Source of the DNA: Paracyclopina nana
Lineage: Eukaryota; Arthropoda; Copepoda; Cyclopoida; Cyclopettidae
Direction: 5' to 3'
Assembly (NCBI GenBank): GCA_019096065.1
Contig: JAGUCH010000002.1
Location: 10,056,501 to 10,120,500 of the forward strand
Length of the DNA stretch: 64,000 nt
Shown: positions 17,981 through 62,511 of the stretch, in pieces
Layout: each line of letters begins with the position of its first letter
Numbering within the stretch: position 1 is the stretch's first letter
Notes under the pieces: model-generated
Told to the model about the DNA's origin: nothing
Databases searched by the model: none
Seen by the model: the letters and a program-made list of their open reading frames with translations, nothing else
Translations under genes and position numbers: made by a program

Positions 17981-18037
17981 CAGCAAAGTTGACGGAAAAT
18001 GTGAAATAGTGACCATCGCGGTCTAGAGATACGCTTA

Positions 18038-18651
18038 TGTTGAAGTCCTCTATGCCCGGTGATGGCCTCGGCGTCCTCGAAGAGAACTATGACAGCCTCA
18101 GAGGAAACTTCAAAAGAGAAAGGCCGCTTCCACAGCGAATCCTCCACAACTCCACGATGGTTGGTCTGCCAAGGGAGTTCAAAGGGTCCTGGTCCAACTC
18201 CTCAATGCTCAAGGATGAGAGCAACAGTAACCAATATGTCCCCTGTAACTTCTTCTTCTGAGTGTGAGAGACCAATAAAAGAGACAATAGAACAAGATGC
18301 TTGTCCTCTACAGCTAGATCATGAAATAAAATGCATACATGAGCCAGATTTCTCCAGCTAGAGACTCAAAACCTGACTACAATGACTTCCTGACTACCTG
18401 GACAGCTTTAGCAGTCCTTGAATGAGCCCTTCTGACTCTACAAAAGACAATAAAGACAAACTTGACACTATAACTTGACTAGACTACATAAAATAAACTA
18501 AGACTAAAAATTGCACAAAAAATTGACTTCTTATTCAGTTCAACATAATTCTCACACTGATACAATATTCGAGTTGGCGCTGAGATGACGAGGCTCCGGC
18601 GATGATGGGAGACGCAGCTGCGCTGAGGCGCAGCCGTTGCGGCCCGCAACA
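18038..18651 (-). repeat. 3' LTR of the BEL/Pao element
   Basis: 614 bases, from TGTTGAAGTCCTC to GCCCGCAACA on the plus strand. Compared by eye along its full length with the copy at 32276-32889, I saw no difference. It lies on the dehydrogenase side of the insertion. Confidence 0.95.
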
Positions 18652-18704: not shown

Positions 18705-21700
18705 TTAAGGCCAAGACGAGGCCATTGGGAGGGAGCGATCCTCCAAGACGTATTCGTCTCTCAATCCTCGGCCGTAGACCTCGTCCACACGATTGTAGGG
18801 AACAAGGTCAATGCGTCCATCGGTGTCATAGCACATTTCCAGCTCGAAGGCCCCAAAATATTTCAAGCCCTTGAGGCTCATTGCGGTCGCAATCGTGGCT
18901 TCCTCGACGAGTCTGGTCCAGGGGACGCTTCCAAACTTGGCATCCAAATGATGATCCGAATGGTGGCCGATCTCATCGCAAAACGCGCACACCTTCAGCA
19001 CCCGCCCACAGGTCAGGACGGTGTGCCCGTCCTCGTCACAAGTAGGGAGCACGCAATGGAGGGGGGCGGTGCACGTGGCCTCCAAGTGATCGAGGCTGCC
19101 ACATTTGGCGCAATAGTGGGGGCAACTCCTGCCAATGGTGCGCTTGACGAGCGAGTAGGCGAGGTGGCTGAGGCTGGCCCGGTGCGGAGGCTTACCCAGC
19201 AAGCAGGTGAAGGCTTTCGCCAAGCGGCCGTCCACATTGTGGAGGTCGAGCCTGTAAGGCCGACCCATCCTCCAATACCTTCGAGTCGACTTGGCGCTAT
19301 TGAGGCTCATGGCCGAATCCGCTCCTAAAAATAGGAACTCGGCTTTCACCTGATCCTCCTCGTACAGGGCTCCATTTTTGATCCACTCTTCTTTGTTGAG
19401 AGGCTTGAAGTCGCGGACCCGCCGGAGTTGACCCACTCCTCCTCGCTCGCGGACGCGATCGCACAAGAAGTGAGCGTGCCTCCATACATCGGCCTTGCCC
19501 GAGTACCCGTGCCTGGTGAGGCCCTTCACGGTGGTGTAGATCACCAGCCCGATGGCAGCCACGTGTTGCAGCCACAAGAAGTGATGCATGTCATCAGTCC
19601 AGTCACATGGATCACGAGAAAAGTCCATAGACCTTTTGTTGGCCTCGAAAACCCTTTGATCGGGGTGCAGCGGTGGCAGCTGCGACAGCCTCTTCCCCTT
19701 CATCCTTGGGACCCTGTGAAGGCCTATACGGCCTGCCACATAGGTGAGCCCGGTGTGAGGCTGACTTTCGTCCTCTTGGGGGAAAGCCACGAGAGCCAAA
19801 ATATTGGCATCAACTCGGCCTCGAACCTTCCATCCGAGCTGCTCAAACCGGCATTCATCCATCATGTTGAAGCCTACAACCCTGATCTTCTCATCAGCCA
19901 ACATGTCCAGGATGGGCTGAGGCACCGCGGCCCCGAACCTCTTGCCATTGCTGCCCTCGCTCAAACCGTGAACCACGAGCAGGTGTCCTTTGACGCCAAA
20001 AGTGACAGCTGTGTAACAGCCTTCAGGGGATTTTCGGCTGCCACTGGCAATAAGGCCTCGCGCTTCAAGGGCCCCATAAGTCCAGGGCTCGAAATGACAT
20101 GTCATCACTCCGCCCCCATCAGCTGCCCGGAAGAAGCCAGCCTTCTTCAGCCTCGCTTCCACTGAAGTCCACTGCGAATCACGTGTCAGGTGAAACACGG
20201 ATTTTGCTCCACGGGCACGACTATCAAATGGGCCAGGCCCAAAATCGACGTCCTCGAGGGCGTCCTCCAAGGAGTAGACGTCATAGCAGTTGCTGCCACC
20301 TTGCCTCCTTTGAATCTCCAAGAGAAAGGGCGGCTCTGGCACCTTGGTGATGCACGCGTCTCGAGGGCACTCCACCAGCTCTTTACCCTCAAGGTAAGCT
20401 TGGGCTGCGATGCAGGGGGGATCATCGGTGGGCTTACCAGTAGCTTCGCAGGGAGCCCAAAAAGAGGCCTGTGGCAGGTCTCCGTATTGTGGATCCACCT
20501 CAATGTCGGAGGCGAGGTGATCTCGGCCCTCCTCATCGCCACCGTGCTTGGCGAAACTGCGCCAATAGCGGCCTACGAATTCAGGCACGCTAGCCTCGGT
20601 TATTTGGCCCCCGTAGCATGACAGAATTGAGGCTATTCCCACATCAGTCGTCTCAGAGATTGCCCCCTTCATTTTGCTCCCATAAAAAGAGCGCGCCAGC
20701 GACTTTCGCAGCTGCCAGGACTCCCAGGCCGATTGTCGGGCGTCCCCGATCAGTGGAGGGGGGTTGAATGGCTTTTGCCCGCTCCTTCTTGCGACCAAGG
20801 TCTGTTTGTAGTAGGCGTCATACACGTCAAACAGTTTCCCGTGGCAGCACTCCATCACGACCTTAGGTGGGTAGCCCATCGCCAGTAAGGCCACCCTGGT
20901 GGCGTCATGCTTTTCAGCCACAACGCATGCGATGGCTCGCTGCTCTTCTGACCGGAATTCTTTTACGCCTCGAGGCCCGTAGTCCATCGAATGGGCCAGA
21001 AACGACACTTTGGGGTCGCAGTAGTGCTCCATAATGGCGGGTGCGGTCATGACCCCCAGGACTTGGTCCTCGCAGAGCATCAGCCTCGCTCCATGAGCTG
21101 CCCTTATGCCTCGAACAGCCTCTTCGATGTCCAAGAGCCTTTCGGCGTAATGGTTAGGAAACTCTCCTGAAATGATGAGGCCAACACGATCAACTATGAC
21201 ACTCGATATGCGCGACGAAATCTGACTAGATTCTGAGGCTGAAAGAATCCCAGCTTCAGCCCCAGCAGCGGCCTCATTTATGGTAGATTCAGAGAGCTCT
21301 AATCTTGGAGCTTTATGACGGCTTTCAGGGAGGGGAGTCGATTGCATGCGCTTCTTAGTTGCCGGCGAGCTTTTGGATCTAGCGGCTGCCAGAGGTTCTC
21401 CAGTATTTCTACTGGGAGTGGTAGCGCTGGCCGACATTGAAGGGCTAGCAGGATCGTCATCCAGTAAGGCGAAATCGGCCTCGTCCACGCAGACTCCCTC
21501 CCATTCCATGTCATCCCTACTGCCTAACAGCTCTGCTGTCACAGAGTCATCCTGATCTGCTTGGAGAGCTTGACCCTCCCAACCTACTCCTTCCTGCCTA
21601 TCGCTACTACTATGGTTACCTCGGGAGAGGGCTTGTCCTCGAAGCAGACTTTCGTCTCCTGACAGTTGGCTGGCACCAGTGGCATCCAGCGGCAAGATGG

Positions 21701-22955
21701 GTGGTGGCAACCCACGGGAGGCATCGGCCATCTCCACATCGTGGTGCTGCTCCTTCGGCTCTTCTTGGAAGCTGAGGTCGATCAACGGCAACTCGGGATT
21801 TTCAGGCAAGGCAACCTTACTGTCCAGGCCGAGAAGATTCCCCGTGGGCGCATCGGTGAGAAGGTCCATGGGGACGTTGGGGACGTGGTCCATCCCTGGC
21901 CTCTCCTCCTCGTCGAGTTTGACTCCATCCTCTTCACTCGTCAGCTGAGCGAGCGACACGTCAGTGCTGACGGCAGAGCTCTCCCGATTGATGGTGGCCA
22001 CCTCCACGAAGGGAGAAAATCCCACGCTCCGACGCGAGGTCATGGACGGCTCACGAGGATGAGGCACGACCTCAGCAGCCTCCATCTCCTCTCGATGCCT
22101 TTCCAGATCCAGCTGCCTGGCCTTCCAGGCTGCCTCACGCAACGTTTGCGGGCACAAAGGCAGGCCCTCCCGATGTACTGGGAGCGGCGGTCGGGTGGCG
22201 GAAGAGCTGCTCGCAGGCGGCCTCGGGGACGGCGGCCTCGGAGACGGCGGCCTCATAACCGAGGCGGACCTCATCAAACCTCGGAAGCTCGGAGGCGGTC
22301 CAGGTCCGGGCCTCACTCCAGGTCCTGGGGCGAAACGAGGCGGCGTGGCGGACCTCAGGGCGGCGGGAGGTCTTGGAGGCCTCTCCGGGGACATGGAGCG
22401 CGACCTCGGGGGAACGGCCCTGACACCAATTGGACCGTAAGGACCCATTATTGCCACACCCACAGAGACGTAAGGCTGAGAGCTCGATTTTTCCAGGGCT
22501 TCCGCTGAATCCTTGAGGGCAGCCTCCAATCCGAGGACGATATCCTCGTCCGTGAGGGAGGCTGCGAGTGCTTTTACAGCAGACATGACGAAATTCACGA
22601 TTTCACGTTGCACGTAGGTCGATTTCTCGAAAACTAGACTGAGTTCTCTCAGCGTGGAGAGTCGCCGGAAAAGGACGCTGAGAACTCGCACTGGTTCAGC
22701 TGCCGTATCCTTCGTCGCTAGGTTGCGAGGTCGCGCTGCGTACCTTCCGCAATTTGACGAGATTTTTCGAATACTAAAATAAAAACAACTACGCATCATC
22801 AGCTGCCAACGGTTAAGTTGGGCCTCTGACCTCGTAAGATCTCCTAAAAGTGTGCCCTTCTTGGCGGTGTTACTCGTTGCGAGCAACGGAGTCAATCTTT
22901 TTAAAAGAGTGATTGTAGTCAAAAGAGTGAAACTCACAGCTGAGGCAAATTGCAT
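18705..22955 (-). CDS. BEL/Pao second ORF: disordered region, RNase D-like fold candidate, three zinc knuckles
   Basis: Uninterrupted 1,416-codon frame between pol and the 3' LTR. The N-terminal ~28 residues are hydrophobic with an interrupting Lys/Arg (a weak leader at best). Residues ~180-620 are low-complexity, rich in Pro, Ser and acidic residues. Residues ~920-1150 look like an RNase D/DEDD 3'-5' exonuclease fold: a strand pair (AVTFGVKGHLLVVHG), then ILDMLADEKIRVVGF, NMMDECRFEQLGW (like the ExoII motif, N..xD) and VDANILALV, then GLTYVAGRIGL. The first acidic motif and the final Y/HxxxD are not clear, so it may be inactive. Residues ~1282-1331 hold CAKCGSLDHLEATC (CX2CX4HX4C), CVLPTCDEDGHTVLTC (a CX4C variant) and CAFCDEIGHHSDHH (CX2CX4HX4H). 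No transmembrane anchor or envelope-like layout is seen. It begins 19 bases before the Gag-Pol stop codon. Function unknown. Confidence 0.85.
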   Translation of the reverse strand: MQFASAVSFTLLTTITLLKRLTPLLATSNTAKKGTLLGDLTRSEAQLNRWQLMMRSCFYFSIRKISSNCGRYAARPRNLATKDTAAEPVRVLSVLFRRLSTLRELSLVFEKSTYVQREIVNFVMSAVKALAASLTDEDIVLGLEAALKDSAEALEKSSSQPYVSVGVAIMGPYGPIGVRAVPPRSRSMSPERPPRPPAALRSATPPRFAPGPGVRPGPGPPPSFRGLMRSASVMRPPSPRPPSPRPPASSSSATRPPLPVHREGLPLCPQTLREAAWKARQLDLERHREEMEAAEVVPHPREPSMTSRRSVGFSPFVEVATINRESSAVSTDVSLAQLTSEEDGVKLDEEERPGMDHVPNVPMDLLTDAPTGNLLGLDSKVALPENPELPLIDLSFQEEPKEQHHDVEMADASRGLPPPILPLDATGASQLSGDESLLRGQALSRGNHSSSDRQEGVGWEGQALQADQDDSVTAELLGSRDDMEWEGVCVDEADFALLDDDPASPSMSASATTPSRNTGEPLAAARSKSSPATKKRMQSTPLPESRHKAPRLELSESTINEAAAGAEAGILSASESSQISSRISSVIVDRVGLIISGEFPNHYAERLLDIEEAVRGIRAAHGARLMLCEDQVLGVMTAPAIMEHYCDPKVSFLAHSMDYGPRGVKEFRSEEQRAIACVVAEKHDATRVALLAMGYPPKVVMECCHGKLFDVYDAYYKQTLVARRSGQKPFNPPPLIGDARQSAWESWQLRKSLARSFYGSKMKGAISETTDVGIASILSCYGGQITEASVPEFVGRYWRSFAKHGGDEEGRDHLASDIEVDPQYGDLPQASFWAPCEATGKPTDDPPCIAAQAYLEGKELVECPRDACITKVPEPPFLLEIQRRQGGSNCYDVYSLEDALEDVDFGPGPFDSRARGAKSVFHLTRDSQWTSVEARLKKAGFFRAADGGGVMTCHFEPWTYGALEARGLIASGSRKSPEGCYTAVTFGVKGHLLVVHGLSEGSNGKRFGAAVPQPILDMLADEKIRVVGFNMMDECRFEQLGWKVRGRVDANILALVAFPQEDESQPHTGLTYVAGRIGLHRVPRMKGKRLSQLPPLHPDQRVFEANKRSMDFSRDPCDWTDDMHHFLWLQHVAAIGLVIYTTVKGLTRHGYSGKADVWRHAHFLCDRVRERGGVGQLRRVRDFKPLNKEEWIKNGALYEEDQVKAEFLFLGADSAMSLNSAKSTRRYWRMGRPYRLDLHNVDGRLAKAFTCLLGKPPHRASLSHLAYSLVKRTIGRSCPHYCAKCGSLDHLEATCTAPLHCVLPTCDEDGHTVLTCGRVLKVCAFCDEIGHHSDHHLDAKFGSVPWTRLVEEATIATAMSLKGLKYFGAFELEMCYDTDGRIDLVPYNRVDEVYGRGLRDEYVLEDRSLPMASSWP

Positions 22956-25900
22956 AGCCTCGCGAACACAGCCTCCTCGATTTCGTGCTCGCCATTTGTA
23001 CAGGCCTTTTTCTTGTCGTTACTTGACACGCTTCTCTTTTCAGAGCTCTTCTTGGCGAGAGTAGTACTGCTCGGCTTCCGATCTAATGCCAGATTGGCGA
23101 AATGCAAGTTCAATGATGCTTGTGTTTGTAGCTCTTGCTGCAGCCTTTCCAGATCGGCCCAGCCCTCATCGGGTTGCAACTCCTGAAGCTTAGGAGCCTC
23201 TTTCCACCTGTTGCGAGGCCACTGGATCATCTGGTCCGTCTCACGGAAGACCTCCAAAGGTATGAGATCTTGTGTGGCTTTCTCATAAATCACAGGCAGC
23301 TTTTCTTCCTCTTTAGGCCCAGGTGGAATAAGCTTGACGAATGCTCGTCTTACCTCGCCATCCTGATCTGGGGTGACCTTTTCTACGATTCCAAGAGGCC
23401 AGTAATAGCGCCTTTCGGCCATTCGTTGATCGAGCACAGCTACAACGTCCCCCTTTCGGAGGGTCTCCCTGTATTTTGTCCACTTAGGCATCCTTTTGAG
23501 CTTCATGACCAGCTCCTCAGCGAAGAATTCCCACATGCGTTGCAGGACCGCATCCAACAAGGCATATCGCTTCTCCAGAGTCTGAATGGCTGCCTTGTCA
23601 ATCACGGGCAAGGCATCTCCAGGAGGTCCTCTGGTCAGAAAGTGATTGGGTGTGACGAAATGACCGTCTACTTCTCCAATCGGCCTTCCATTGACGAACC
23701 CTTCGGCCTTGACCATGATGTACCGAAAATCTTCTACGGGAGTAACCTTTCGGTAAAACTCTCTGTAGAATGCCCGCTTGAAAATCTTGATCCCAGCCTC
23801 GGCTAGGCCGTTGAAGTGTGGAGCCCAGGGGGGGGATAGTGTCCATTCGACGATCCCGATGTGACCTCCAAACTGCCTGACTCGATCCCAATCGACGGTA
23901 AGAAGTCTTTCCTTGAGCTCAGAGTACCGTGGATTACTTCGCAGGTCTTCCCGACAGCCGATAAAATTCGAACCGTTGTCTGACCTCAACGCGTAAGGGC
24001 AGCCCCTCCTGGATACGAAAAGCTCGATAGCTCGCATGAGGGAGTCCGACGAGATATCAACCACCTCTTCGCAATGGATGGCCTTGCTATGAGCGCAGAT
24101 GAATACGATCACGTACATCTTGTAGTTGTCTCGACCAAAAGTGCAGGAGAAGGGTCCGCACATGTCGACACTGGTGTATCGAAAGGGCAAAAACTCCGTG
24201 ATGGGAATGGCATGAGGTGGTAGAAGGCCCATATGCGGAGGGGCTTGCTTGGCAACCCACCTGACGCACATAGCGCATTCTTTAAGGATTGTCCTAATGA
24301 CATTTTTGGCACCGGGTAACCAGTACCTCTTCTGAGCCTCAGTCAAGTATCTGTTTCTCCCGTAGCCGTGCCCTAGCTCCTGATGGACATCCTGCAGGAT
24401 CAATCTGCGGGCGTACCCAGGTACAATGAGTTGACGCCTTCCAACCCAAACTGCAGTGGTGGCATCTAGCCTACCTTTGGTGCGGATTTCTCCGTTGGCG
24501 CCAATGTAAGGGTCTAATGGGCCCAACTTGGAGCCCTTCGGCCACTCGCCGCTGGCCAGGAAGGCATCAATTTCTGAGCCATAGGTGTTCTGTTGTATCC
24601 ACAGGACCAGCAGTTCCTCGACCTTTTCGAATTCGGTGCTTCCAGCTCGACCTGTTGGAATTTCTTCCCAAGGTTTATTTTCCTTGAGCTTGAACCTTTC
24701 GGCCACGCAGAGCGCACGAACCATCCTTTTCCAGGAAGAAAAATCTTCCATCTTGACTGGGCAAGGGCTGACCCGAGCCTGGGTCCAAGCTTCCACAACG
24801 TCGGCGGAAGGTCTCAAGTATTCGGGGATGGTGTATCTCCCAAGCTGCTCAAAAGTGGCCAGCATTACTAACTTCTTTACCGCTTTCTTTCCAGCCTTGA
24901 TGGTCGCGCCAGGCACCTTGCGAAGCTTCATATACCCGTCAATAGCAGCCTTTTCATCATCCGTCACGGTAGGCACCCATTTGGGCCAATCCTTTTCAGG
25001 ACCTCGCAGAAAGGCTGGGCCATGCAGCCAGGTGTCGCTCGAAGCCAGCTCCTCTATTGACATGCCTCGCGTGATATAGTCAGCCACGTTGACCCTACCA
25101 GGTACGTGTTTCCACAAGTGCTTCTGTGTTGAATCGAAAATCGCAGTGACCCTCCTGGCAACATAGCCTCGCCAGTTTCCTGCGGGTTTGCATATCCAGG
25201 TTAGCGCGCATTGGGAATCAGTCCAAAGTGTGACACTGTCAACGTGTTCTAAAGACTTCTCTAAATCAAAACACAGTTCGGAGCCTAATACACATCCATT
25301 CAACTCCATTTCTGGCATTGAGCGGATTTGACGAAGAGATGCCAGGTTCAGTCTGGCTGCCATAAGGACGCAGTCGACCCCTCCACCTGGATAGACCGAT
25401 CTGATGTATGCTGAGGCTCCCTTGGCAACTTCGCTAGCATCGGTAAATATGTGCATCTCTATTCTCTCGGCGAACCTGCACCTGACGGCTCTGGGCAGGC
25501 GGAACAACTCGATGGCTTTCACCTGCCTGACGTAGTCTCGCCATTCCTTGAGGATCTCTTCCATCTCTGGATGATCCACCATTTCCAGGGCAGTATCCCA
25601 TTCGATTTCGAACAGCATTTTGAGCTGCCAAACCCGCTGTATGAGCCTTTTCCCTTTCAGGATGAATGGTGATAGAAGATTCAACGGATCATGCAAGCGA
25701 GGTACGAATTGTGCCATCATTCTCATCGTAAGAGGTGCTTGGCACATGAACTCTGCGTCCGGAGGTTGGAACACGATTTGGTCTCCGATGCAGTCGACGT
25801 ACATCCCTAGTGCTTTTGTGACATCGGCATCCTCCGCTTGGACTTGAAATCCAGGTAATATTAGATCTTGGTCCACATCAACTAACGCTTCTGGGCAGCT

Positions 25901-28900
25901 ACTGCCCCATTTGCGGAAAGGCATCGATCCGGCCTCGCCCACTTCTAGGATCTGCTTGATGGCCTCTTTGGCCTCTCCGGCGTCCTCTACGGATGCAAAA
26001 ACGTCGTCAACATATAAAAACTTGTCAAGGATCCGGAAGGCTTCAGGGTGCGAATCTTGAAACTTCGAAATATGATGTTTCATCGCAAATGTGGCCATGC
26101 AAGGTGCTGAGGCCGTTCCAAAGACTACCGAGGTTGCCTCATAATGCACTCCTTGCCAGATGAAGCGGTGGTAAGGTCTGGATGCTGGGTCGAGTTTGAA
26201 GCGCAAGAACATTTTCGATATGTCAGCGACAAGCATGACTGGCTTTTCGCGAGCTCCTACCAGAATTTCAAACACGTTGCGTTGTAGTTTGGGCCCTGGC
26301 AATAGAGCATCATTGAGGCTCTTGCCGTAGTGCTTTCGCGCTCCATCGAACACGACTCTTACTGGCATCGACGGTTTGTCCGGCCTTTCGACCAACAGCC
26401 AGTCCAGGTAATTACAATCTTCATCTAAGTTATCAACAAGAGGGTCGAGCACTCTTATGAAACCCAACCTAAGCCATTCTAGAATTTCTTCCGTGGCTTT
26501 ATTATAGGTCTCCTCATCGTAAAGAAAAAGCTTCCTTTCCAAGCAGGCAGTCGACTTCAGGACTCTCAACCTGTTGCAGGTGAACCGTGGCTCGCCGTCC
26601 TTCCACATTGGGCTCATTTGATAAGATCTGTCGCTCAGCTGGGTTATGGTATTGACCAAGATATCGAGGGCCTTTTGGTCATTTATGCTGAGGGTGGGAG
26701 CCTCTTCCACCTGAGGGCGGTCAAATTCCCACATGGCTTGAAGACTCTCAATAGGCGGACCAGACTTTTGATGACACTGGTCGCACACCATCACCCCCGG
26801 CGGTTCCTGGCTTTCCCAGTCTCGAGTTGACGCCATGGCGGCGAATGCGACGACTTTTTCCTTGCCACTTTGGCCAGCAGTCGGGTCATAATAGGTAAGA
26901 ACCTTTCCCAGTTCACATTCATAGACATATGGCTCACCGTCCTTATGATGCAGAATTTTGGTGGGCATGATGAGGTTAAAGCAGTCAAGTCCCAATAAAA
27001 TATCCGGATGTGGATTTCTCGCATACGTAGGTAAGTCGAAGTCTTTCAAATTTTTAAATTTTTGCTTTAACTTGTGAATCGGAGGCGTGTTAATTGACGA
27101 GGGCAATTCTGTGAGGGTATGCACGGGCAGATCATGATGCTTATCTCCCCCCACTGCTTTAACCCTCAAAGTGACCAACCTGCTTGGCAAGTTCAGAGTC
27201 GTTGCGATCATTTTCAAGGTTTGGTCATCTTTGGGCCCTTTCAGGCCCAATTTTGTGGCTAAATTGTCGGTGACCATTGACAGCTGCGCCCCGGTGTCCA
27301 GAAAGGCGTTCGCTTTCACGAACTGCCCAGTTTCAGGGTTGGCGACCATGATAGGGACTACGCAAAAACTTAGCAAGCCTTCTTCTGCGGTAGCAAGACA
27401 ATTTACGTTTTCTTGGGGGGTTTCTAGCTTAATGGGATCGATTTCATCCCAGCCATCAGGGTCCCTTTCGGGTTCAGGTGTAGGTGCCAAACTTATGGCC
27501 TCAGATTGGTCCCCCGTGGCAACATTGGCGAAGATTGGTTCTGATTTGGGTTCCGGTTTTTGAGGTTGATCGTAGCCAGATCTGCCTCCCCCCTTTGCAT
27601 TTGTGCTTTGGCCGGTGAATAGACTTGTTGTTGCAACTGTTGGCTTTTTGACCATTAGCATTGCAACCCGTTTTTCTAACTCATCTAGCCTGTCCCGTTG
27701 CGGGTCAGACTCTTTCTTTTCAGGTTTGTCTTTGCCGTCAGTGCCTTTGGAGGTCCAAGCATCGTGGAGAAGATAGTGATGTGTCTTGGACCCGCATTCT
27801 TTGCAGGACCAGTTTTTCCTACATTCGTACACGTTATGTACACCTCCCAGACACCTAAAACAGGCCTTGAAGTCCCTGGCTTTCTTGAGTCTTCCCACTC
27901 CGTGCATGGCCAAAAGATGCGGACAATTGTAGAGCATGTGCTCTTTTGTATCGCATTCTGGGCACTTCGTGAAGTACCTTTGATCGCCTCTAGCGACTGT
28001 CATGATCGTGACTACTCCCATTTCGTTGATGACGGGCAACTCTTCCATTTCGACCTGCTCCGTGTTGACCATTATCGGTGGTGGTTGTGATGACGGGTAA
28101 GAGGTCGAAGATTGGGATGCTACATGGTTGAAAGCGACTGACTGGTGCCACTTGGGCTCTTCATTTCGGGTTCTTTCTGGATAGAACTCCCCCTCCTCAG
28201 GTAAGACGTTAGAGGCTTGGAAAGTATGTACATTCTTTGCGGCTGCTGTCTTTTTGGTCTTTTCAGCCTTGGAGGACTTGTGGTAGCCTTGGCACCTTTC
28301 GATGCGTTGATGATGAGCGGTCCAATCTCGGAATAATTGGAATGTCATGTGAGTCCTCTTTTCAGCCATCAGTAGCTGATTGACCATGATTTGGGTGGAC
28401 GGGGTAAGTTTCAGACTTCGGAAGATTGTACTATCTTGGATGTCACCGTGGTAGCTGCCGGAATTCAATAAATGCTTGTGGATGCGGTTGATCAGTTTCC
28501 TGGCATTCATCACATTTTCTGGATCAGTCATGTCCAGCGGTGCAAGCTCAGACAGTTCCTGCATGAAGTAGTCAAATTGGAGTTTGTCATTTCCAAACTC
28601 TCTTTCGAGACATTCCAGAGCTTCGTAGTAGCCGTCTTCGTCTTTTGGGAATTCGTCAACCAGATCTCCTGCTGGTCCCCCTTGAGTACTGTCCAGAAGG
28701 CGAGCCCACTTTTCACTTATGGACATGGCTGCGTCTCCGTGAACAAATGACCGAAATCGTTCCTTGAAGCGGTAATATTCCGTGGGGTGCCAGCCGTCGA
28801 ATTTAGGTATTTCTACCTGCGACAGCTTAAGACTCGATTTGCCGTAAAAATTTCTCGGTTCCCATGGGACGTAGGGCCAATCTTCCTCCGTGTTTCCACC

Positions 28901-31900
28901 CCTGTTGACCGCAGTTGGCTCATATTCATCTGGATTTCCCCATCCAGTAGGAGCATGTTGCCGTTGCGGCCTGGCAGAGTGCATCTGGGATGCTTGTTGA
29001 GGTGGCGGTCTGCTGCTGCGAGTTCCCGGTGGAGGGTATCTCTGATGCGGATAGATTGTGGTTTGCTGTGGCCCCTGAGGCCGTAGATTGCTTCCTGGCA
29101 GCAGCTGGCCCATCCCTGGCCCATAACCACGGACCACAGGTGGGGCGTACTGGCGGAGCCCTTGAGGTGGGCCCTGCGGAACGCAGTATGGAGGTTGCTG
29201 GACCGGCATCTGTCCGTAGTACTGCGCCACGGTTGGATGAAATTGTCCTTGGTAGACAGCTTCATTGCTCGTCCCATAAATGGGTTGCTGAGGCGGTCCC
29301 TGCGGGAGTTGCTCCGTGACGTGAGTGACAGGTGCATAGACAGATTGAGTTGGTCTGAACTCTGGGGCATTTGATCTCAGGTCCGTGTGCGTAGCGATAG
29401 GAGCTGCATGTGACCAAGTTGGCCAAGTGACTGGTACGGGTTGCTGTGTCGACTGCGTTGTGGACCAGGTGTAGCCGGATGTATTCGGTACTTGTGTCGG
29501 TGGCAGCGAGATGTACTGATGCGCACCCGGCATGGGAGCAGCTGTACTCCTTGGAGCACTTTGCTGCTGAGCTTGATCCTCAGTACGTGCGGTTATCAAC
29601 CCATCCAACTCACTCTGAAGGTCGAGTGCCCTTCTCATGGGTTCCTCGTCTGACTCGGGAGGTTGCTCGTTGCACTCTACAATCCGGTCTCTGGCTTCCA
29701 TGAAAGACTCGATAATCCGGGTGTAAATCTGACGTTGCCACAGCAAGCGATCCAGGGAAGCGTTCTCTGCCATGAGTTGCTCTGCCGCTCTCATTCCATC
29801 CTTCAACAGCGTAAGGTTTTCAGCATACAGAAGAGCCACTTGCATGAAGCTTCTTCTTGTGGTGGTGCTGGCCACCGAAGGCTGAGTTTCACTCAGATTT
29901 CTCTGGTGAGTGGCTGGTGGTGGATTTTCCACGATTTGCGGCACTTGTGAGCTTAAATTGGGGTTATTGCTCGAAAGTTGATGATGTCGAAGAGTTTCCT
30001 CTGGTCCCGCTCCAGGATTCAGCCTCGGCCCCTGGGGCACCCGGTGGACGCTCAAGGCGGCATCAATTTCTCCTTTCCTGGCCTTAGGCAGTTCATTAAT
30101 CCACATTCGAGTGGCGGGAAAGATTGATTGACGATGATCCAGGGTGAAGATTTCCATAGTATTTCGTTTTAGCAGCCTTACGCCCTGGTTGCCGCCCCTG
30201 AATTCGACTATGTAATTCCCGAGCAAGTTACCGCTTTCGTCCCAGTCTTGGGGCAGAGGTGTGCCAATAGTGTAATCGCCAGACTCGCGTTGCGCTTTTT
30301 CAATTTCAGCCACGGTCATTCCACCGTACGAGGTGACAGCTCCGGCGGACGAGCCTTCCATTGGCTGTCCCGACGTGCGCAGGCTGTTGATTGGTTGGTT
30401 GCCCGCAGCCGCATTGTTGACGGTTGATTGCGCCGCTCCCCCCGGTTGAGGTATGCGAGGCCTGTTGTCATTGAGCTCCCGCTCTCTTTCCCGGTCACGT
30501 TGCCGAGCGGCAAGTTCATTTCTGAACTTGATCAGGTCTTCCACAGAAAACAAGAGCTTTTGTACTCCGTTGTAGCAGGTAGAGAATGACGAGCGCAATT
30601 GGACTGAAGGTTCCAACCTGGCTAAAGCTACCGTTCTATCGTATGACTGTCGGAGTGCGTTCAAGTCCCTCAAATAATTCGACAAAGTTTCCTTGGCAGC
30701 GGTTAGCTGCTCGGGGTGCGCCCTCTGCTGGCCTTCCAGCAAGGCTTTCCTCTGCTGAGTGACGTATGGCAGTATCTCCTTGAACTTCCGTTGGAGCCTT
30801 TCGGTGATGGCCAGAGCCTCACTCTCTGCGTTGCGCATCTCGTTTAAACCCGCCTGTGACATTTTAGCTGAGTTGGGCCTAGACTTGGTGCCTCTCGGTG
30901 TGTACTCTCCAGTTTTTCCAGAGTTGGACGCGGCTGCCCTGTACCGACCTGGTGGAGCCTTGTCCTTGGGGTGGCTGATGCTCCTGACAGAGGCATTGTC
31001 TCCCAGGCTGAGATTACTCGGTTGATACACCGATCCGGCCTCGCTACGGCCTGTATCTCTGCTCCGTTTTCTCTTCGGGGGTTGCAAGGACGAGCTTGGC
31101 ATAACAGCTTCCTCTCCAACGCCTCCAGCAGCTCCTGTGGAGCTTTCACTCTCAGCTGACGTGGTAGGGACCACTGCTATCATCGCCATTGTTCTGGGAT
31201 CCTGCTGCTGAGCAGGTGGAGCATATCCAGGGAATTGCTGACTAGGAGAAGGCGCAAATCCGGAATTTTGCATGGCAAATTGATACATCTGCGGGTTCAT
31301 AAACATGGGGTTGAACATTGGCATAGAGGGGTAAAATCCCTGATTAGGAACGCCCGCAAAGCTCTGCCCTGAGCTAGTCGCGAAACCTGAGTTGGCGGCC
31401 GATGAGAAGTTCCCTGGGTACTGCATGCCCATTTGTGGGTAAGGATAGTAGCCTTGCGCACCTTGCTCAGTGGCTGCGCTGGTTGCGACATTTTGCCCCG
31501 TGGTTGGAGGTAGCATTTCTGCGGGTTTGGCTGCTGAGGCTGATCCGGACCCCGAGGTCGCGCCAGCCGCTGCGGCGTTTTCAGTTGGTCCGCTTGCGAC
31601 GGCTAAGTTGGGATTTGAACTGCCCGCATTAGAAGGTCCTGCCTGAGGAGATTCATTGTTAGGGTTTCCCCTTTCTTGGCTGCCCCCGAGGCTAGAAAGT
31701 ATATTTCTGGCAGCTCTCGAGTTGTCAGGAGTGCGCTGCATTTCTGAGCTTTCGAAGCCGTGAAAGGGTGAAGTATCAGAGACAGCGTAAAGAGGATCCC
31801 AAGCAGCTTCTTCCGCCTGGATCGAGCTTACCCCGTGGCTTGAGTGCGAAGGATCTAGCGACGAAGAGGCTGGAGCAATTGAGACCAGGTCTTCCAAGGG

Positions 31901-32227
31901 ATCTGGTCCAAGCAGAATTGTTCGCCTGAATTCCTCTATTTCATTGATCCACTGATAGGAATCGGTAGAATCTCCAATTAGTGACCTCGCAGAGCGTCGG
32001 GACGAATCTTTCGATACAGCAGAGGATCCGGATGAAGATGAGCTGTGGCGGACTATTTCTAATCCGGCAGCTCTTCTAAGCCTCTGAACGTTAGTTCTAG
32101 CCTGAGTAAGAGGAGAAAGCTCCAAATTTGGGAAACCAGAGCCCTGCTCCGGGGCTTGACCTCGAACTCGCCTGCTATATCTCGCGGGGACAGGAGTGGA
32201 CTCAGAGAACCCGTTAGGGTTGGTCAT
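22934..32227 (-). CDS. BEL/Pao Gag-Pol polyprotein
   Basis: 3,097 codons without interruption. Residues 1 to ~1130 are disordered (Gln, Pro, Ser, Asn rich). About 1130-1320 is a DUF1759-type Pao Gag domain (IPKFDGWHPTEYYRFKERF). About 1422-1489 has three zinc knuckles: CPECDTKEHMLYNC, CFRCLGGVHNVYEC and CKECGSKTHHYLLH. The aspartic protease site AFLDTGAQLSMV is near 1640. Reverse transcriptase follows, with VADISKMFLRFKLDP and the YVDD box near 2070. RNase H has FTDASEVAKGASAY near 2262. Integrase has an HHCC zinc finger (HQELGHGYGRN ... CAMC) and a DDE triad: D in SVDMCGPF near 2684, D in RSDNGSNF near 2750, E in NGLAEAGIKIF near 2809. A DUF5641-like tail (KGDVVAVLDQRMAERRYYWP) ends the enzyme part. 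All catalytic residues are intact. The untranslated leader from the 5' LTR is only 48 bases. Confidence 0.96.
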   Translation of the reverse strand: MTNPNGFSESTPVPARYSRRVRGQAPEQGSGFPNLELSPLTQARTNVQRLRRAAGLEIVRHSSSSSGSSAVSKDSSRRSARSLIGDSTDSYQWINEIEEFRRTILLGPDPLEDLVSIAPASSSLDPSHSSHGVSSIQAEEAAWDPLYAVSDTSPFHGFESSEMQRTPDNSRAARNILSSLGGSQERGNPNNESPQAGPSNAGSSNPNLAVASGPTENAAAAGATSGSGSASAAKPAEMLPPTTGQNVATSAATEQGAQGYYPYPQMGMQYPGNFSSAANSGFATSSGQSFAGVPNQGFYPSMPMFNPMFMNPQMYQFAMQNSGFAPSPSQQFPGYAPPAQQQDPRTMAMIAVVPTTSAESESSTGAAGGVGEEAVMPSSSLQPPKRKRSRDTGRSEAGSVYQPSNLSLGDNASVRSISHPKDKAPPGRYRAAASNSGKTGEYTPRGTKSRPNSAKMSQAGLNEMRNAESEALAITERLQRKFKEILPYVTQQRKALLEGQQRAHPEQLTAAKETLSNYLRDLNALRQSYDRTVALARLEPSVQLRSSFSTCYNGVQKLLFSVEDLIKFRNELAARQRDRERERELNDNRPRIPQPGGAAQSTVNNAAAGNQPINSLRTSGQPMEGSSAGAVTSYGGMTVAEIEKAQRESGDYTIGTPLPQDWDESGNLLGNYIVEFRGGNQGVRLLKRNTMEIFTLDHRQSIFPATRMWINELPKARKGEIDAALSVHRVPQGPRLNPGAGPEETLRHHQLSSNNPNLSSQVPQIVENPPPATHQRNLSETQPSVASTTTRRSFMQVALLYAENLTLLKDGMRAAEQLMAENASLDRLLWQRQIYTRIIESFMEARDRIVECNEQPPESDEEPMRRALDLQSELDGLITARTEDQAQQQSAPRSTAAPMPGAHQYISLPPTQVPNTSGYTWSTTQSTQQPVPVTWPTWSHAAPIATHTDLRSNAPEFRPTQSVYAPVTHVTEQLPQGPPQQPIYGTSNEAVYQGQFHPTVAQYYGQMPVQQPPYCVPQGPPQGLRQYAPPVVRGYGPGMGQLLPGSNLRPQGPQQTTIYPHQRYPPPGTRSSRPPPQQASQMHSARPQRQHAPTGWGNPDEYEPTAVNRGGNTEEDWPYVPWEPRNFYGKSSLKLSQVEIPKFDGWHPTEYYRFKERFRSFVHGDAAMSISEKWARLLDSTQGGPAGDLVDEFPKDEDGYYEALECLEREFGNDKLQFDYFMQELSELAPLDMTDPENVMNARKLINRIHKHLLNSGSYHGDIQDSTIFRSLKLTPSTQIMVNQLLMAEKRTHMTFQLFRDWTAHHQRIERCQGYHKSSKAEKTKKTAAAKNVHTFQASNVLPEEGEFYPERTRNEEPKWHQSVAFNHVASQSSTSYPSSQPPPIMVNTEQVEMEELPVINEMGVVTIMTVARGDQRYFTKCPECDTKEHMLYNCPHLLAMHGVGRLKKARDFKACFRCLGGVHNVYECRKNWSCKECGSKTHHYLLHDAWTSKGTDGKDKPEKKESDPQRDRLDELEKRVAMLMVKKPTVATTSLFTGQSTNAKGGGRSGYDQPQKPEPKSEPIFANVATGDQSEAISLAPTPEPERDPDGWDEIDPIKLETPQENVNCLATAEEGLLSFCVVPIMVANPETGQFVKANAFLDTGAQLSMVTDNLATKLGLKGPKDDQTLKMIATTLNLPSRLVTLRVKAVGGDKHHDLPVHTLTELPSSINTPPIHKLKQKFKNLKDFDLPTYARNPHPDILLGLDCFNLIMPTKILHHKDGEPYVYECELGKVLTYYDPTAGQSGKEKVVAFAAMASTRDWESQEPPGVMVCDQCHQKSGPPIESLQAMWEFDRPQVEEAPTLSINDQKALDILVNTITQLSDRSYQMSPMWKDGEPRFTCNRLRVLKSTACLERKLFLYDEETYNKATEEILEWLRLGFIRVLDPLVDNLDEDCNYLDWLLVERPDKPSMPVRVVFDGARKHYGKSLNDALLPGPKLQRNVFEILVGAREKPVMLVADISKMFLRFKLDPASRPYHRFIWQGVHYEATSVVFGTASAPCMATFAMKHHISKFQDSHPEAFRILDKFLYVDDVFASVEDAGEAKEAIKQILEVGEAGSMPFRKWGSSCPEALVDVDQDLILPGFQVQAEDADVTKALGMYVDCIGDQIVFQPPDAEFMCQAPLTMRMMAQFVPRLHDPLNLLSPFILKGKRLIQRVWQLKMLFEIEWDTALEMVDHPEMEEILKEWRDYVRQVKAIELFRLPRAVRCRFAERIEMHIFTDASEVAKGASAYIRSVYPGGGVDCVLMAARLNLASLRQIRSMPEMELNGCVLGSELCFDLEKSLEHVDSVTLWTDSQCALTWICKPAGNWRGYVARRVTAIFDSTQKHLWKHVPGRVNVADYITRGMSIEELASSDTWLHGPAFLRGPEKDWPKWVPTVTDDEKAAIDGYMKLRKVPGATIKAGKKAVKKLVMLATFEQLGRYTIPEYLRPSADVVEAWTQARVSPCPVKMEDFSSWKRMVRALCVAERFKLKENKPWEEIPTGRAGSTEFEKVEELLVLWIQQNTYGSEIDAFLASGEWPKGSKLGPLDPYIGANGEIRTKGRLDATTAVWVGRRQLIVPGYARRLILQDVHQELGHGYGRNRYLTEAQKRYWLPGAKNVIRTILKECAMCVRWVAKQAPPHMGLLPPHAIPITEFLPFRYTSVDMCGPFSCTFGRDNYKMYVIVFICAHSKAIHCEEVVDISSDSLMRAIELFVSRRGCPYALRSDNGSNFIGCREDLRSNPRYSELKERLLTVDWDRVRQFGGHIGIVEWTLSPPWAPHFNGLAEAGIKIFKRAFYREFYRKVTPVEDFRYIMVKAEGFVNGRPIGEVDGHFVTPNHFLTRGPPGDALPVIDKAAIQTLEKRYALLDAVLQRMWEFFAEELVMKLKRMPKWTKYRETLRKGDVVAVLDQRMAERRYYWPLGIVEKVTPDQDGEVRRAFVKLIPPGPKEEEKLPVIYEKATQDLIPLEVFRETDQMIQWPRNRWKEAPKLQELQPDEGWADLERLQQELQTQASLNLHFANLALDRKPSSTTLAKKSSEKRSVSSNDKKKACTNGEHEIEEAVFARLCNLPQL

Positions 32228-32255: not shown

Positions 32256-32273
32256 GCCCCACGTTGGGCGCCA
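32256..32273 (-). promoter_or_regulatory. Primer-binding site, tRNA-Lys(CUU) type
   Basis: On the minus strand TGGCGCCCAACGTGGGGC starts two bases after the 5' LTR. It is complementary to the 3' end, including CCA, of the animal tRNA-Lys(CUU) as I recall it (GCCCCACGTTGGGCGCCA). The 18-base match is seen; the tRNA identity rests on known tRNA sequence. Confidence 0.85.
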
Positions 32274-32275
32274 CT

Positions 32276-32889
32276 TGTTGAAGTCCTCTATGCCCGGTGA
32301 TGGCCTCGGCGTCCTCGAAGAGAACTATGACAGCCTCAGAGGAAACTTCAAAAGAGAAAGGCCGCTTCCACAGCGAATCCTCCACAACTCCACGATGGTT
32401 GGTCTGCCAAGGGAGTTCAAAGGGTCCTGGTCCAACTCCTCAATGCTCAAGGATGAGAGCAACAGTAACCAATATGTCCCCTGTAACTTCTTCTTCTGAG
32501 TGTGAGAGACCAATAAAAGAGACAATAGAACAAGATGCTTGTCCTCTACAGCTAGATCATGAAATAAAATGCATACATGAGCCAGATTTCTCCAGCTAGA
32601 GACTCAAAACCTGACTACAATGACTTCCTGACTACCTGGACAGCTTTAGCAGTCCTTGAATGAGCCCTTCTGACTCTACAAAAGACAATAAAGACAAACT
32701 TGACACTATAACTTGACTAGACTACATAAAATAAACTAAGACTAAAAATTGCACAAAAAATTGACTTCTTATTCAGTTCAACATAATTCTCACACTGATA
32801 CAATATTCGAGTTGGCGCTGAGATGACGAGGCTCCGGCGATGATGGGAGACGCAGCTGCGCTGAGGCGCAGCCGTTGCGGCCCGCAACA
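32276..32889 (-). repeat. 5' LTR of the BEL/Pao element
   Basis: 614 bases, by-eye identical to the LTR at 18038-18651. It should hold the promoter for minus-strand transcription of the element. The short frames inside both LTRs (for example 32297-32599) are identical repeats rather than genes. Confidence 0.95.
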
Positions 32890-33684
32890 CTTAATGCGGC
32901 AGTTGCATAGGGAAATCGGTATCATGACATTGTTTTGACAAATTAGGGTATCAAGAAATGGATGAAGCGAAAAAGTACTACATCTGGTGGATACGATACT
33001 TTTATTTTATCTTTATAACATTCTTTGATTTTTGTACGCCATGATGTTGTAAAGCTAGCCAAGGTGGAGGTAGCACAAGTTTCAGCTACTCAAGATGACT
33101 TGAGAAGCGTCAAACTGATCGTGCTTCCCCAAGACCAAAGCCCGAACCAACCATCAACGGCTCTGAAGAAATACTAGTCGACGCATTTTGCCAGGCCGAA
33201 GGTTCAATTTTGCACAATTGAGTTACTAGGCGGCAAGCAGAAGGCGCCAACTGAAGTACTCTTCGTCTGGGAGAATATAACCAACAACCTGGCTGCCATG
33301 CTGCACAGTCAGGTTGGTGCTCGAGTCTGGGTGGGGTGAGGAGAGCAGGTGAAGTCTTCAAAGACATCCTAATAAGGTTATTGAGTAATGAAATGGCATA
33401 CTGATTAAGTTTGGACTGAAAGGGTATTTACAAGTGACTTAGATATTATATACATATATAGAGTTAGTAGATTCGTCTCATACCAATTGCTTTTGATTGA
33501 TAGTTAATGTAAGAGAGGAGAGATAGGGGGAGAGGTTTGACAACACAGGCAACCGATTTTTAAATACTTATAGGCAACACTCGCAATCACCTATCAACAC
33601 ACCAATTTAGATTCAATGAAAGAGCGTTATGTTCTTCTTTTCTGACAAAGGGTTTCAGAGCTTTGTCCAATCCTGGGGGGAAAT
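32890..33684. other. Intergenic region between BEL/Pao and Maf1
   Basis: Probably includes the Maf1 3' UTR (minus strand). A minus-strand frame at 33110-33367 has no domain resemblance. A short TATA-rich run is at 33447-33460. Nothing else seen. Confidence 0.4.
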
Positions 33685-36471: not shown

Positions 36472-37944
36472 CTAGTATTTATTCCACTTTTCTATCCATT
36501 CAGAAGTCTGACGTAAGTAGCAATCAGGAAAGTCGGGTAGGTACGAACTGTAAGAATACCCTTCGATAGATTTGGGAACGGCAGGCTCGATTTGAGTGCC
36601 TTCATGCCACTCATTAAACGATGTAATAGAAATCAGCGGCAGCTTCAGCTCTAAAAATGTCCGCCACCCAAGGCCGTAATATAAGCCTTTTCTTCTAAGT
36701 CTTGTTGCCTGGCCGTTCCACGGTCTCACTCGCAAGTCATTGTACCCAGGACCAAGTGATGGTATGAACAAGAGAGAATATTTGCGAGCAAATACAGCCA
36801 GGTTTCTCCAGTTTTTCCACGTGGATCCATAGGAAAATCCGTTTGCAGCGAAATATGTGTAGAAGCCATCGAAGCCGCCTGCAGATATAGCTGTGCGATG
36901 TTTATAGTCAACTAGTAGACCAATAAAAGTTGCATCTAGATCTGTGCCCCTGACAGAAAGATCACCAGCTGGAGTTAAAAGGCGCTTCCATTCAATTGTT
37001 GGCGTCAAGTACGAATCATAAATGTAGTACAGCGGTTTCCCTTTGTATTTGTAAAATGCTGAGTGGTTGCCATAGGATTCGTTAATGTACTTTAGGTTCG
37101 CCCTCAAAGTTACTGGCGATCGTCCTGCATAAGGTTCGATGTGAAAAGCTATTTTCAGGCCAACTTTTGTAGCTGCATCTAGCAAAGTTGGAACTATTGC
37201 GTCAACGGGTGGCCCATGCTCATCATTCAGCCCAGGAGGATACCAAGACAAAACAACCACACCAATGTTGGCTGACTTCATCATTGACATGTGTGTTTTC
37301 ATGACAGCTGGATCTTGAGAGCTGTAACACCCCAATTTGGGGTAAAAATTTGCACCTATGTCATCTCGCTCCGGCCGGTGCGAAATACCAACAGGAAATT
37401 GACGTTTGTCGTTCTTGTCCCAGTTTTGGAGGTATTCGTGATTCCAGTGATACCATTTGCCATCATGCTCAGGATTGCCGTACCAAGCATAGTAAAACGT
37501 ATGCACTCGGCTCGCTAAAGTTGTGACAAATGGCTGACCGGTTGACGTCATGAAATTTGAGTTAACTTTGAGAGATTCTTCTTCATCTAAATCAATAACG
37601 CCGATTCTATTCGTGCCGGAGCGAGCTGCAAACTTCGCAGGCTTTTGTTGCCTCATGTTGTCAGGAAAGTATTGGACATTGGGGCGACGTGCGGACATTT
37701 GAGTAGGCTCATATTTGACTTTTTCTATGGCTAGCATGTCGCTCTGCTCAGGGCCGAGGCCTCCTATTCCCCGAAGTTGAGCTGCGATGCCACTAAATTG
37801 AGCATGCTCTTTGTTAATTGCCAAAAATGCACTGACAACAACGAAAATCACTAGACCCAAAAAAGTGACAAGGAGAGCAGCTCTCTTTAGCCGCCTTAAG
37901 AGCCATCGGCCAAGCCGCGGCCAAAGTTTAAAGGCCTCTTCCAT
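36472..37944 (-). CDS. MANEA: Glycoprotein endo-alpha-1,2-mannosidase (GH99)
   Basis: Intronless frame of 490 residues from ATG 37944. Residues ~20-48 form a single membrane anchor (AALLVTFLGLVIFVVV) after a short basic tail, the type II topology of Golgi endomannosidases. The GH99 catalytic domain starts at THTFYYAWYGNPEHDG-like sequence (here VHTFYYAWYGNPEHDG) and includes WYPPGLNDEHG, AFHIEPYAGR and SFNEWHEGTQIEPA, which carry the conserved acidic residues. MANEA trims glucosylated mannose from N-glycans, a bypass of ER glucosidases. The AATAAA at plus-strand 36478-36483 (complement) overlaps the last codons of the frame. It is divergent from the Chk2 gene on its other side. Confidence 0.93.
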   Translation of the reverse strand: MEEAFKLWPRLGRWLLRRLKRAALLVTFLGLVIFVVVSAFLAINKEHAQFSGIAAQLRGIGGLGPEQSDMLAIEKVKYEPTQMSARRPNVQYFPDNMRQQKPAKFAARSGTNRIGVIDLDEEESLKVNSNFMTSTGQPFVTTLASRVHTFYYAWYGNPEHDGKWYHWNHEYLQNWDKNDKRQFPVGISHRPERDDIGANFYPKLGCYSSQDPAVMKTHMSMMKSANIGVVVLSWYPPGLNDEHGPPVDAIVPTLLDAATKVGLKIAFHIEPYAGRSPVTLRANLKYINESYGNHSAFYKYKGKPLYYIYDSYLTPTIEWKRLLTPAGDLSVRGTDLDATFIGLLVDYKHRTAISAGGFDGFYTYFAANGFSYGSTWKNWRNLAVFARKYSLLFIPSLGPGYNDLRVRPWNGQATRLRRKGLYYGLGWRTFLELKLPLISITSFNEWHEGTQIEPAVPKSIEGYSYSSYLPDFPDCYLRQTSEWIEKWNKY

Positions 37945-62505: not shown

Positions 62506-62511
62506 ATGTGA
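62506..62511 (+). promoter_or_regulatory. Start-stop upstream ORF touching the BMP2/4 start
   Basis: ATGTGA: an ATG followed at once by a stop whose last base is the A of the BMP2/4 ATG (TGATG). Its context (CAACC before ATG) is fair. Minimal AUG-stop elements are known to hold ribosomes and reduce downstream initiation. Confidence 0.45.

What the first reader, a model, noticed from the sequence alone, without database searches (positions are those of the whole stretch)
18705..22955. Second retrotransposon protein is not an envelope and may contain an RNase D-like fold
BEL/Pao elements with a third gene normally carry an env. Here residues ~920-1150 show the pattern strand pair, ILDML...IRVVGF, NMMDE, VDANILAL, GLTYVAGRIGL, close to the layout of RNase D/EXD-type 3'-5' exonucleases (as in WRN, MUT-7, Egalitarian). 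The first catalytic acidic motif and the last Y/HxxxD are unclear, so it could be an RNA-binding pseudo-exonuclease. A protein of this kind could act in RNA processing or against small-RNA silencing of the element. This is the best candidate for an undescribed system in the window.
Basis: partly seen in the sequence, partly recalled or inferred. Interest (0 to 1): 0.88.

Follow-up and report, generated by a model that had tools for sequence, protein, structure and literature searches.

The report
Retrotransposon protein with dead exonuclease domain
The third gene of this young animal retrotransposon does not look like a viral envelope but like a protein built on an RNA-trimming exonuclease that has lost its cutting residues while staying under selection, in the same genome as sister elements that still have them.

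Summary
In detail: an intact 1416-codon ORF (minus strand, 22955..18705) follows gag-pol of a BEL/Pao element with identical 614-bp LTRs. It has no conserved membrane segment and three C-terminal zinc knuckles. The exonuclease guess is supported, indirectly. The window protein alone matches nothing, but its genome holds 105 related ORF3/exonuclease places, 94 of them downstream of a BEL/Pao pol. Of 10 sister places read, 9 keep the catalytic letters (D-E-D-Y-D in all 8 complete ones) and one is dead. The 9 match PF01612 in 7 cases at E up to 1 (best 7.8e-7) and as a profile hit only exonucleases in the PDB (WRN, EXD2, diDNase; best E 0.0078). They align with the window group at hhalign probability 99.1, E 5.7e-19. 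In the window group 0 of 26 copies keep the first or last catalytic Asp, yet dN/dS is 0.01-0.14 (12 of 15 pairs) and ORF3 and pol trees agree (Mantel r 0.89-0.91). Most likely it is an RNA-binding pseudo-exonuclease, an accessory RNP protein; function is inferred. DEDDy ORF3s are known from rotifer elements; BEL/Pao carriage, antiquity and a selected dead clade appear new. Fold unconfirmed: the permitted structure prediction failed.

The parts
18705..22955 (-). ORF3, 1416 aa, intact; overlaps the end of gag-pol by 22 nt
20286..21188 (-). conserved N-terminal part of the core (residues about 590-890), unknown fold, holds HYCDPKVSF...YGPR, shared with the sister ORF3s
   Evidence: E 5e-7 segment
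19491..20213 (-). degenerate DEDDy exonuclease (PF01612-like) domain, residues about 915-1155, pI 9.5
20088..20096 (-). site of motif I: H954-F-E956 where sisters have D-x-E
19854..19859 (-). site of motif II: D1033-E1034 where sisters have D; alignment uncertain by one residue
19566..19580 (-). site of motif III: F1126-x3-Q1130 where sisters have Y-x3-D
18948..19112 (-). three zinc-knuckle-like motifs (residues 1282-1336), the first a canonical CX2CX4HX4C
22934..32227 (-). gag-pol ORF, 3097 aa, BEL/Pao (Peptidase_A17 1.6e-29, RVT_1, Integrase_H2C2, rve, DUF1759, DUF5641)
32276..32889 (-). 5' LTR, 614 bp
18038..18651 (-). 3' LTR, 614 bp, 100% identical to the 5' LTR
32256..32273 (-). primer-binding-site-like stretch 2 nt inside the 5' LTR (TGGCGCCCAACGTGGGGC); tRNA not identified
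   Evidence: sequence printed; reading as PBS is inference
18034..18037 (.). target-site duplication CTTA (other copy at 32890-32893)

Best explanation
ORF3 of this BEL/Pao element is an accessory nucleic-acid-binding protein. It consists of a Pro-rich, poorly conserved N-terminal third, a conserved domain of unknown fold, a DEDDy (RNase D / WRN / EXD-type) 3'-5' exonuclease domain whose metal-binding residues have been replaced, a basic post-exonuclease segment, and three C-terminal zinc knuckles. The gene is an old part of BEL/Pao elements in this genome and has diversified together with pol. One branch keeps the catalytic residues; the window's branch lost them and kept the protein under purifying selection. 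Most likely the domain now binds RNA (or cDNA ends) without cutting. The protein would travel with the element's RNA as an extra nucleocapsid or RNP factor that protects, transports or packages it, much as Egalitarian and EXD1/Maelstrom use exonuclease folds to bind RNA without catalysis. It is probably translated by stop-start coupling at the end of gag-pol. Shown: gene structure, relatives, catalytic loss, selection, co-inheritance with pol. Inferred: fold in the window protein itself, RNA binding, packaging role, mode of translation.
For: Window ORF3 vs sister L016: BLASTP E 5e-11 over the exonuclease region, 3e-9 over the zinc knuckles, 5e-7 N-terminal (E-values for that single comparison); L016 vs family profile hhalign 99.3%, E 8.4e-21. 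L014 matches PF01612 at 1.3e-5, above cut-off; 7 of 9 DEDDy-intact domains match PF01612 at E up to 1, only the best (7.8e-7) printed. The profile of those 9 hits 5 PDB sequences up to E 10: WRN three times, EXD2, and 'ancestor of diDNase', the last taken as a DEDDy enzyme from its aligned sequence. It aligns to the window family at 99.1%, E 5.7e-19. Column-shuffle control: score 59.8 against a maximum of 19.6 in 100 shuffles, on a domain cut from a prior alignment. Catalytic letters: D-E-D-Y-D in 8 sisters; in the window group H 24, Q 1, A 1 of 26 at the first, Q 19, N 6, M 1 of 26 at the last. dN/dS 0.01-0.14 in the 12 of 15 pairs with a finite dS. ORF3 and pol trees agree, r 0.91 (0.89 without the sisters), 0 of 2000 permutations each. 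94 of 105 places lie downstream of BEL/Pao pol against a mean of 0.9 by random placement. Exonuclease stretch pI 9.5, post-exonuclease segment 10.1. Zinc knuckles. No conserved TM segment. pol stop and ORF3 ATG overlap in 14 of 26 copies. Egl ExoHD contacts RNA with dispensable catalytic residues (PMC13186709, passages).
Against: No direct database hit of the window protein or its 26-member profile to any exonuclease. A mixed profile of both groups gave EXD2 only at E 0.1, below an evidently chance fimbrial hit at 0.058. Single-sequence structure prediction failed. The L076 search, which found other window-type copies, did not list the window copy itself. The acidic residue near motif II is conserved in the family, so some metal binding cannot be excluded. 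The zinc-knuckle block is slightly acidic (pI 5.8), the N-domain too (5.7), and the core as a whole near neutral (6.8). RNA binding itself was not tested.
Confidence: 0.66

Rival explanations
1. Counter-silencing decoy: the pseudo-exonuclease binds host small-RNA intermediates or competes with host EXD1/MUT-7/Egl-type proteins, so that the element escapes small-RNA silencing; packaging is secondary.
For: Same fold class as host piRNA and small-RNA factors (recalled; Rodriguez et al. discuss EXD1, Maelstrom and mut-7); the host genome has its own PF01612 genes; old, selected gene with broad carriage.
Against: No closeness to a particular host exonuclease was shown; zinc knuckles and position after pol equally suit a structural role; no expression or small-RNA data.
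Confidence: 0.17
2. Active nuclease with a rebuilt site: H954, E956 and E1034 (and D1049) form a different metal site and the protein still trims RNA or cDNA 3' ends.
For: H at the motif I position in 24 of 26 copies and an acidic residue at or beside motif II; E956 kept in the window subclade, 7 of 26.
Against: The second position is Q, E, Y, V or M among copies and the last Asp is never kept; such variation is not expected of a working metal site.
Confidence: 0.1
3. Envelope-like protein of unrecognised type.
For: Position of ORF3 after pol is where env sits; 12 of 27 copies have at least one 19-residue window of mean hydropathy 1.6 or more, and L030 has one at its N-terminus; the first 40 residues of the window protein look hydrophobic by eye.
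Against: 15 of 27 copies, the window's among them, have no such window; in many copies the highest one lies inside the exonuclease stretch; N-termini are not conserved; zinc knuckles suggest the cytosol.
Confidence: 0.03
4. The similarity to DEDDy exonucleases is convergent or spurious and the fold is something else.
For: Direct searches were empty, the mixed profile was inconclusive and the structure model was uninformative.
Against: Links through sister ORF3s, with catalytic residues, PF01612 and PDB exonucleases, and shuffle control.
Confidence: 0.04

Closest known systems
DEDDy-type ORF3 of bdelloid rotifer LTR elements (Juno, Vesta) and Athena Penelope-like elements (Rodriguez et al. 2017, PMC5408684)
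   Same: Third ORF downstream of pol encoding an RNase D-like domain in place of env; shared among several element families; a Cys-His-Cys motif is noted in Vesta2 and Vesta5.
   Different: There invariant residues are reported intact (DEDD changed to DEED), acquisition is described as at least twofold and relatively recent (one of two readings given), and intragenomic variation as mostly neutral (measured for env- and GDSL-like ORFs). Here the element is BEL/Pao, the gene is old and co-inherited with pol, and the window clade is catalytically dead and under strong purifying selection. Rotifer sequences were not held, so homology of the two ORF3 types was not tested.
PF01612 DNA_pol_A_exo1 / WRN, EXD2, RNase D
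   Same: Domain homology through sister ORF3s; motif order.
   Different: Window protein lacks the catalytic Asp residues; extra N-domain and zinc knuckles.
Egalitarian ExoHD-XAD (PMC13186709, passages)
   Same: Exonuclease homology domain followed by a second module, RNA binding without need for the putative catalytic residues.
   Different: Egl has its EDs and works with BicD; ORF3 has zinc knuckles. No direct sequence comparison with Egl was made.
EXD1 and Maelstrom (inactive DEDD folds of the piRNA pathway; described from PMC5408684 Discussion and recall)
   Same: Catalytically dead DEDD fold kept as an RNA-binding domain.
   Different: Host proteins; no sequence kinship tested.
Env ORF of BEL/Pao elements (recalled)
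   Same: Genomic position.
   Different: No conserved membrane or fusion features seen.

Membership tests
BEL/Pao LTR retrotransposon | LTR pair with short target-site duplication | tested here: met
   614-bp LTRs, 100% identical, CTTA duplication
BEL/Pao LTR retrotransposon | Pao peptidase, RT and integrase in one polyprotein | tested here: met
   PF05380 1.6e-29, PF00078 4.3e-7, PF17921 5.2e-7, PF00665 3.4e-5 (the last below its cut-off)
DEDDy 3'-5' exonuclease (PF01612) | direct match of the protein to the family model | tested here: not met
   0 Pfam families for the window protein; PF01612 not among the families matched by any of 26 members at E up to 1
DEDDy 3'-5' exonuclease (PF01612) | domain homology through intermediates | tested here: met
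   shuffle control; mixed profile inconclusive
DEDDy 3'-5' exonuclease (PF01612) | catalytic residues D-E, D, Y-D | tested here: not met
   H-E, E or D, F-Q in the window; 0 of 26 copies keep first or last D
DEDDy 3'-5' exonuclease (PF01612) | RNase H-like three-dimensional fold | tested here: inconclusive
   single-sequence AlphaFold2 pLDDT 34
DEDDy 3'-5' exonuclease (PF01612) | 3'-5' exonuclease activity | not testable with these tools
   needs purified protein
Retroviral-type envelope | signal peptide and transmembrane anchor | tested here: not met
   hydropathy scan of 27 copies: no window of 1.6 or more in 15, none conserved; simple Kyte-Doolittle only
Bdelloid DEDDy ORF3 (Rodriguez et al. 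2017) | position downstream of pol in place of env | tested here: met
   29 of 31 window-type places and 94 of 105 places in all have pol upstream on the same strand
Bdelloid DEDDy ORF3 (Rodriguez et al. 2017) | common descent with the rotifer ORFs | not tested
   rotifer sequences not in the collections held

The most novel reading that the evidence does not exclude
BEL/Pao elements of this animal lineage took up a DEDDy exonuclease early, as a standing third gene in place of env. They then split into lines with an enzyme and lines with a dead but selected RNA-binding version, a retrotransposon-borne parallel to EXD1/Maelstrom/Egalitarian that shields element RNA or cDNA ends from host trimming and small-RNA silencing.
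Probability: 0.25. Interest if true: 0.85.

Novelty: new variant of a known kind. Interest (0 to 1): 0.62.

Why it matters
ORF3 of LTR elements is usually taken for env by position. Here a large BEL/Pao radiation carries an exonuclease-derived gene instead, with enzyme-like and pseudo-enzyme branches side by side in one genome. That makes a natural experiment: related proteins with and without the catalytic residues, under selection, linked to pol. It makes testable what a retrotransposon gains from such a fold (RNA end protection, packaging, or evading small-RNA silencing), and it gives annotators a profile for a class of ORF3 that direct searches miss.

Tried and rejected
Direct searches that found nothing: Pfam, PDB sequences, 5.8 billion proteins with residues 560-1416 of the window protein, with alignment A1 and with residues 430-934 of sister L016 (in the first two only the 7,993 and 7,999 candidates sharing most words were scored), IMG/VR. 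A home-made DEDD profile of 7 sequences was too weak: L014 at E 0.0069, L016 at 0.031, window at 3.6 among 28 sequences. NCBIfam gave nothing of note for the sister domains. The mixed profile A5 (19 of the sequences held, 12 window-type and 7 sisters) was inconclusive and had a chance fimbrial hit on top. Nematode origin of the host: SL1 22-mer absent as an exact match, cuticle collagen family not found but the control did not ring either; host left unidentified. The PF01612 hits in the genome first looked like host genes only; two of the nine proved to be ORF3s. Rows dropped: the 26-row alignment leaves out the broken or partial copies L019, L036, L037, L038 and L040; dN/dS used 15 chosen pairs, 3 with dS beyond correction over the core and others saturated; the pol tree used 20 of 31 window-type elements plus 2 sisters; catalytic states were read in 10 of 42 sister places (9 intact, one of them cut short; L080 dead and left out of A4); the pol list used the 150 rows and the first 38 of 98 rows.
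Full report
What is there. The ORF at 18705-22955 lies on the minus strand, 1416 codons without a stop. It starts 22 nt inside the end of a 3097-codon gag-pol ORF (22934-32227) with the domains of a BEL/Pao polyprotein. It ends 53 nt before one of two identical 614-bp LTRs, which are flanked by CTTA on both sides. The insertion is therefore very young and the gene is intact.

Relatives. Neither Pfam, PDB sequences, 5.8 billion proteins nor IMG/VR gave a relative of the window protein. The window's own genome (92 Mb, 10 contigs, an animal by its gene content; species not identified) gave 35 matches. I merge these to 31 places; 29 of the 31 have a Pao peptidase domain 1.6-4.2 kb upstream on the same strand. 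Twenty-six copies with an open core (residues 590-1416) were aligned: 25-89% identity to the window, with invariant positions throughout, including the exonuclease-like stretch and a zinc-knuckle block. The profile of the core finds mainly zinc-knuckle proteins in the PDB, best E 0.011 (23 sequences up to E 10, one of them a beta-defensin).

Selection. Nei-Gojobori dN/dS over the core was 0.01-0.14 in the 12 of 15 chosen pairs with a finite dS; in three pairs dS was beyond correction and in others it was saturated. The least saturated pairs say the same: L005/L006 39 synonymous to 2 replacement changes (exonuclease stretch 13 to 0), L020/L023 82 to 12 (11 to 2), L033/L034 19 to 5 (5 to 0). So the frame, the exonuclease stretch included, is under strong purifying selection.

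The link to exonucleases. A search of the genome with the Pfam model PF01612 gave nine matches. Two of them (L014, L016) turned out to be ORF3s that directly follow BEL/Pao gag-pol, with overlaps of 17 and 20 nt. L014 reaches the PF01612 cut-off on its own (25.5 bits, E 1.3e-5); L016 lies just below it (22.7 against 23.6 bits). L016 matches the window ORF3 in three separate blocks: N-terminal part 5e-7, exonuclease part 5e-11, zinc knuckles 3e-9. Against the 26-copy profile it scores 99.3%. A search with L016 found 59 matches, which I merge to 42 further places plus two already known. A search with the exonuclease stretch of one of them (L076) found 95 matches, a number of window-type copies among them at E 9.5e-6 to 6.2e-4, though not the window copy itself. 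Merged this gives 105 places; 94 have a BEL/Pao pol within 9 kb upstream on the same strand, none has one on the other strand within 9 kb, and random placement gives 0.9 on average (maximum 4 in 200 trials). Of 186 pol places in the list used, 94 are followed by such an ORF3. That list holds the 150 rows of the capped and 38 of 98 rows, and weak ORF3s will have been missed, so these are lower bounds.

Alive and dead. I read the exonuclease letters in 10 of the 42 sister places. In 8 with the complete domain (L016, L074-L079, L081) the five catalytic positions read D-E-D-Y-D; L014 is cut short after D-E-D; the tenth, L080, is dead and resembles L039 of the window group. Of the nine intact ones seven match PF01612 at E up to 1, the best at 7.8e-7. 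Their profile finds five PDB sequences up to E 10: 'ancestor of diDNase' 0.0078, WRN 0.021, EXD2 0.034, mouse WRN 0.15, WRN complex 0.26. I take the first as a DEDDy enzyme from its aligned sequence. The alive and the window-type domain profiles align over 236 columns at 99.1%, E 5.7e-19, motif III region included. A narrower cut scored 59.8, against at most 19.6 for 100 column shuffles. In the 26 window-type copies the first catalytic position is H in 24, Q in 1, A in 1. The second is Q 11, E 7, Y 6, V 1, M 1. The fourth is Y 16, F 10, and the last Q 19, N 6, M 1. Motif II is uncertain by one residue: in one alignment the E that is invariant in all 26 (position E445) faces the catalytic D, in another the facing column is E 12, D 11, Q 2, G 1.

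History. A tree of ORF3 separates the 26 from L016/L014 at 100/100. RT-A17 and ORF3 trees of 22 elements agree: Mantel r 0.91, or 0.89 without the two sisters, 0 of 2000 permutations each. ORF3 has thus been inherited with pol across these lineages, unlike a recent capture.

How it probably works. The exonuclease stretch is basic (pI 9.5), the next 120 residues more so (10.1), and zinc knuckles follow; the core as a whole is near neutral (6.8). No membrane segment or N-terminus is conserved, though 12 of 27 copies have at least one hydrophobic window of 1.6 or more and L030 has one at its N-terminus. In 14 of 26 copies the first ATG of ORF3 lies 1-38 nt before the end of an upstream open frame's stop, 4 times as ATGA and once as TAATG (the upstream frame was taken as pol by position, not scanned in each). 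This suggests stop-start coupled translation. In the L029-L035 group no such overlap was recognised. Egalitarian binds RNA with its exonuclease homology domain taking part, while the putative catalytic residues lie about 15 A away and are dispensable (PMC13186709, passages only). The rotifer paper names EXD1 and Maelstrom as inactive DEDD folds that keep RNA binding (PMC5408684, Discussion read). I therefore take the window ORF3 as an RNA-binding pseudo-exonuclease acting in the element's RNP. A counter-silencing role is possible but has no evidence of its own.

Against. The window protein and its own 26-member profile never reach an exonuclease directly. The mixed profile A5 gave EXD2 only at E 0.1, behind a chance hit. 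The one structure prediction run, on the window stretch alone, was useless (pLDDT 34). The case for the fold rests on transitive homology.

Prior work. PMC5408684 (abstract, first part of Results, section 3.6 and Discussion read, other passages searched; [quoted passage not shown] PMC6338049 and PMC5718144 (passages) mention it. My searches (only the listed top rows seen, open PMC papers only) showed no report of an exonuclease ORF in BEL/Pao. The exonuclease ORF3 is therefore a known kind; BEL/Pao carriage, antiquity, zinc knuckles and the selected dead clade make it a new variant.

Noticed in passing
window 18038-18651 and 32276-32889: Two LTRs of 614 bp without a single difference: the element inserted very recently.
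   Followed up: partly
window 28790-32227 (minus): Gag part of the polyprotein has about 1100 residues rich in Gln, Pro and Asn before DUF1759, and gag has its own zinc knuckles (residues 1422, 1456, 1475), so the element encodes two zinc-knuckle proteins.
   Followed up: no
pol/ORF3 junction, window 22934-22955, and L004, L008, L024, L026, L027: Stop and start codons overlap (22 nt in the window; ATGA in L004, L024, L026, L027; TAATG in L008), a candidate for stop-start coupled translation.
   Followed up: partly
window 58684-58913: 40-bp unit repeated 5.8 times at 96% match; also a 23/96/119-bp array at 55018-55247.
   Followed up: no
L080 and L039 (G000 C5:1.761 Mb, C4:5.33 Mb): Very divergent ORF3s with yet other letters at the catalytic sites; no pol found upstream in the capped lists.
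   Followed up: partly
window 36472-37950, 38798-39760, 62508-63611: Host genes (GH99, FHA kinase, TGF-beta) lie in single long open frames, so introns seem few here.
   Followed up: no
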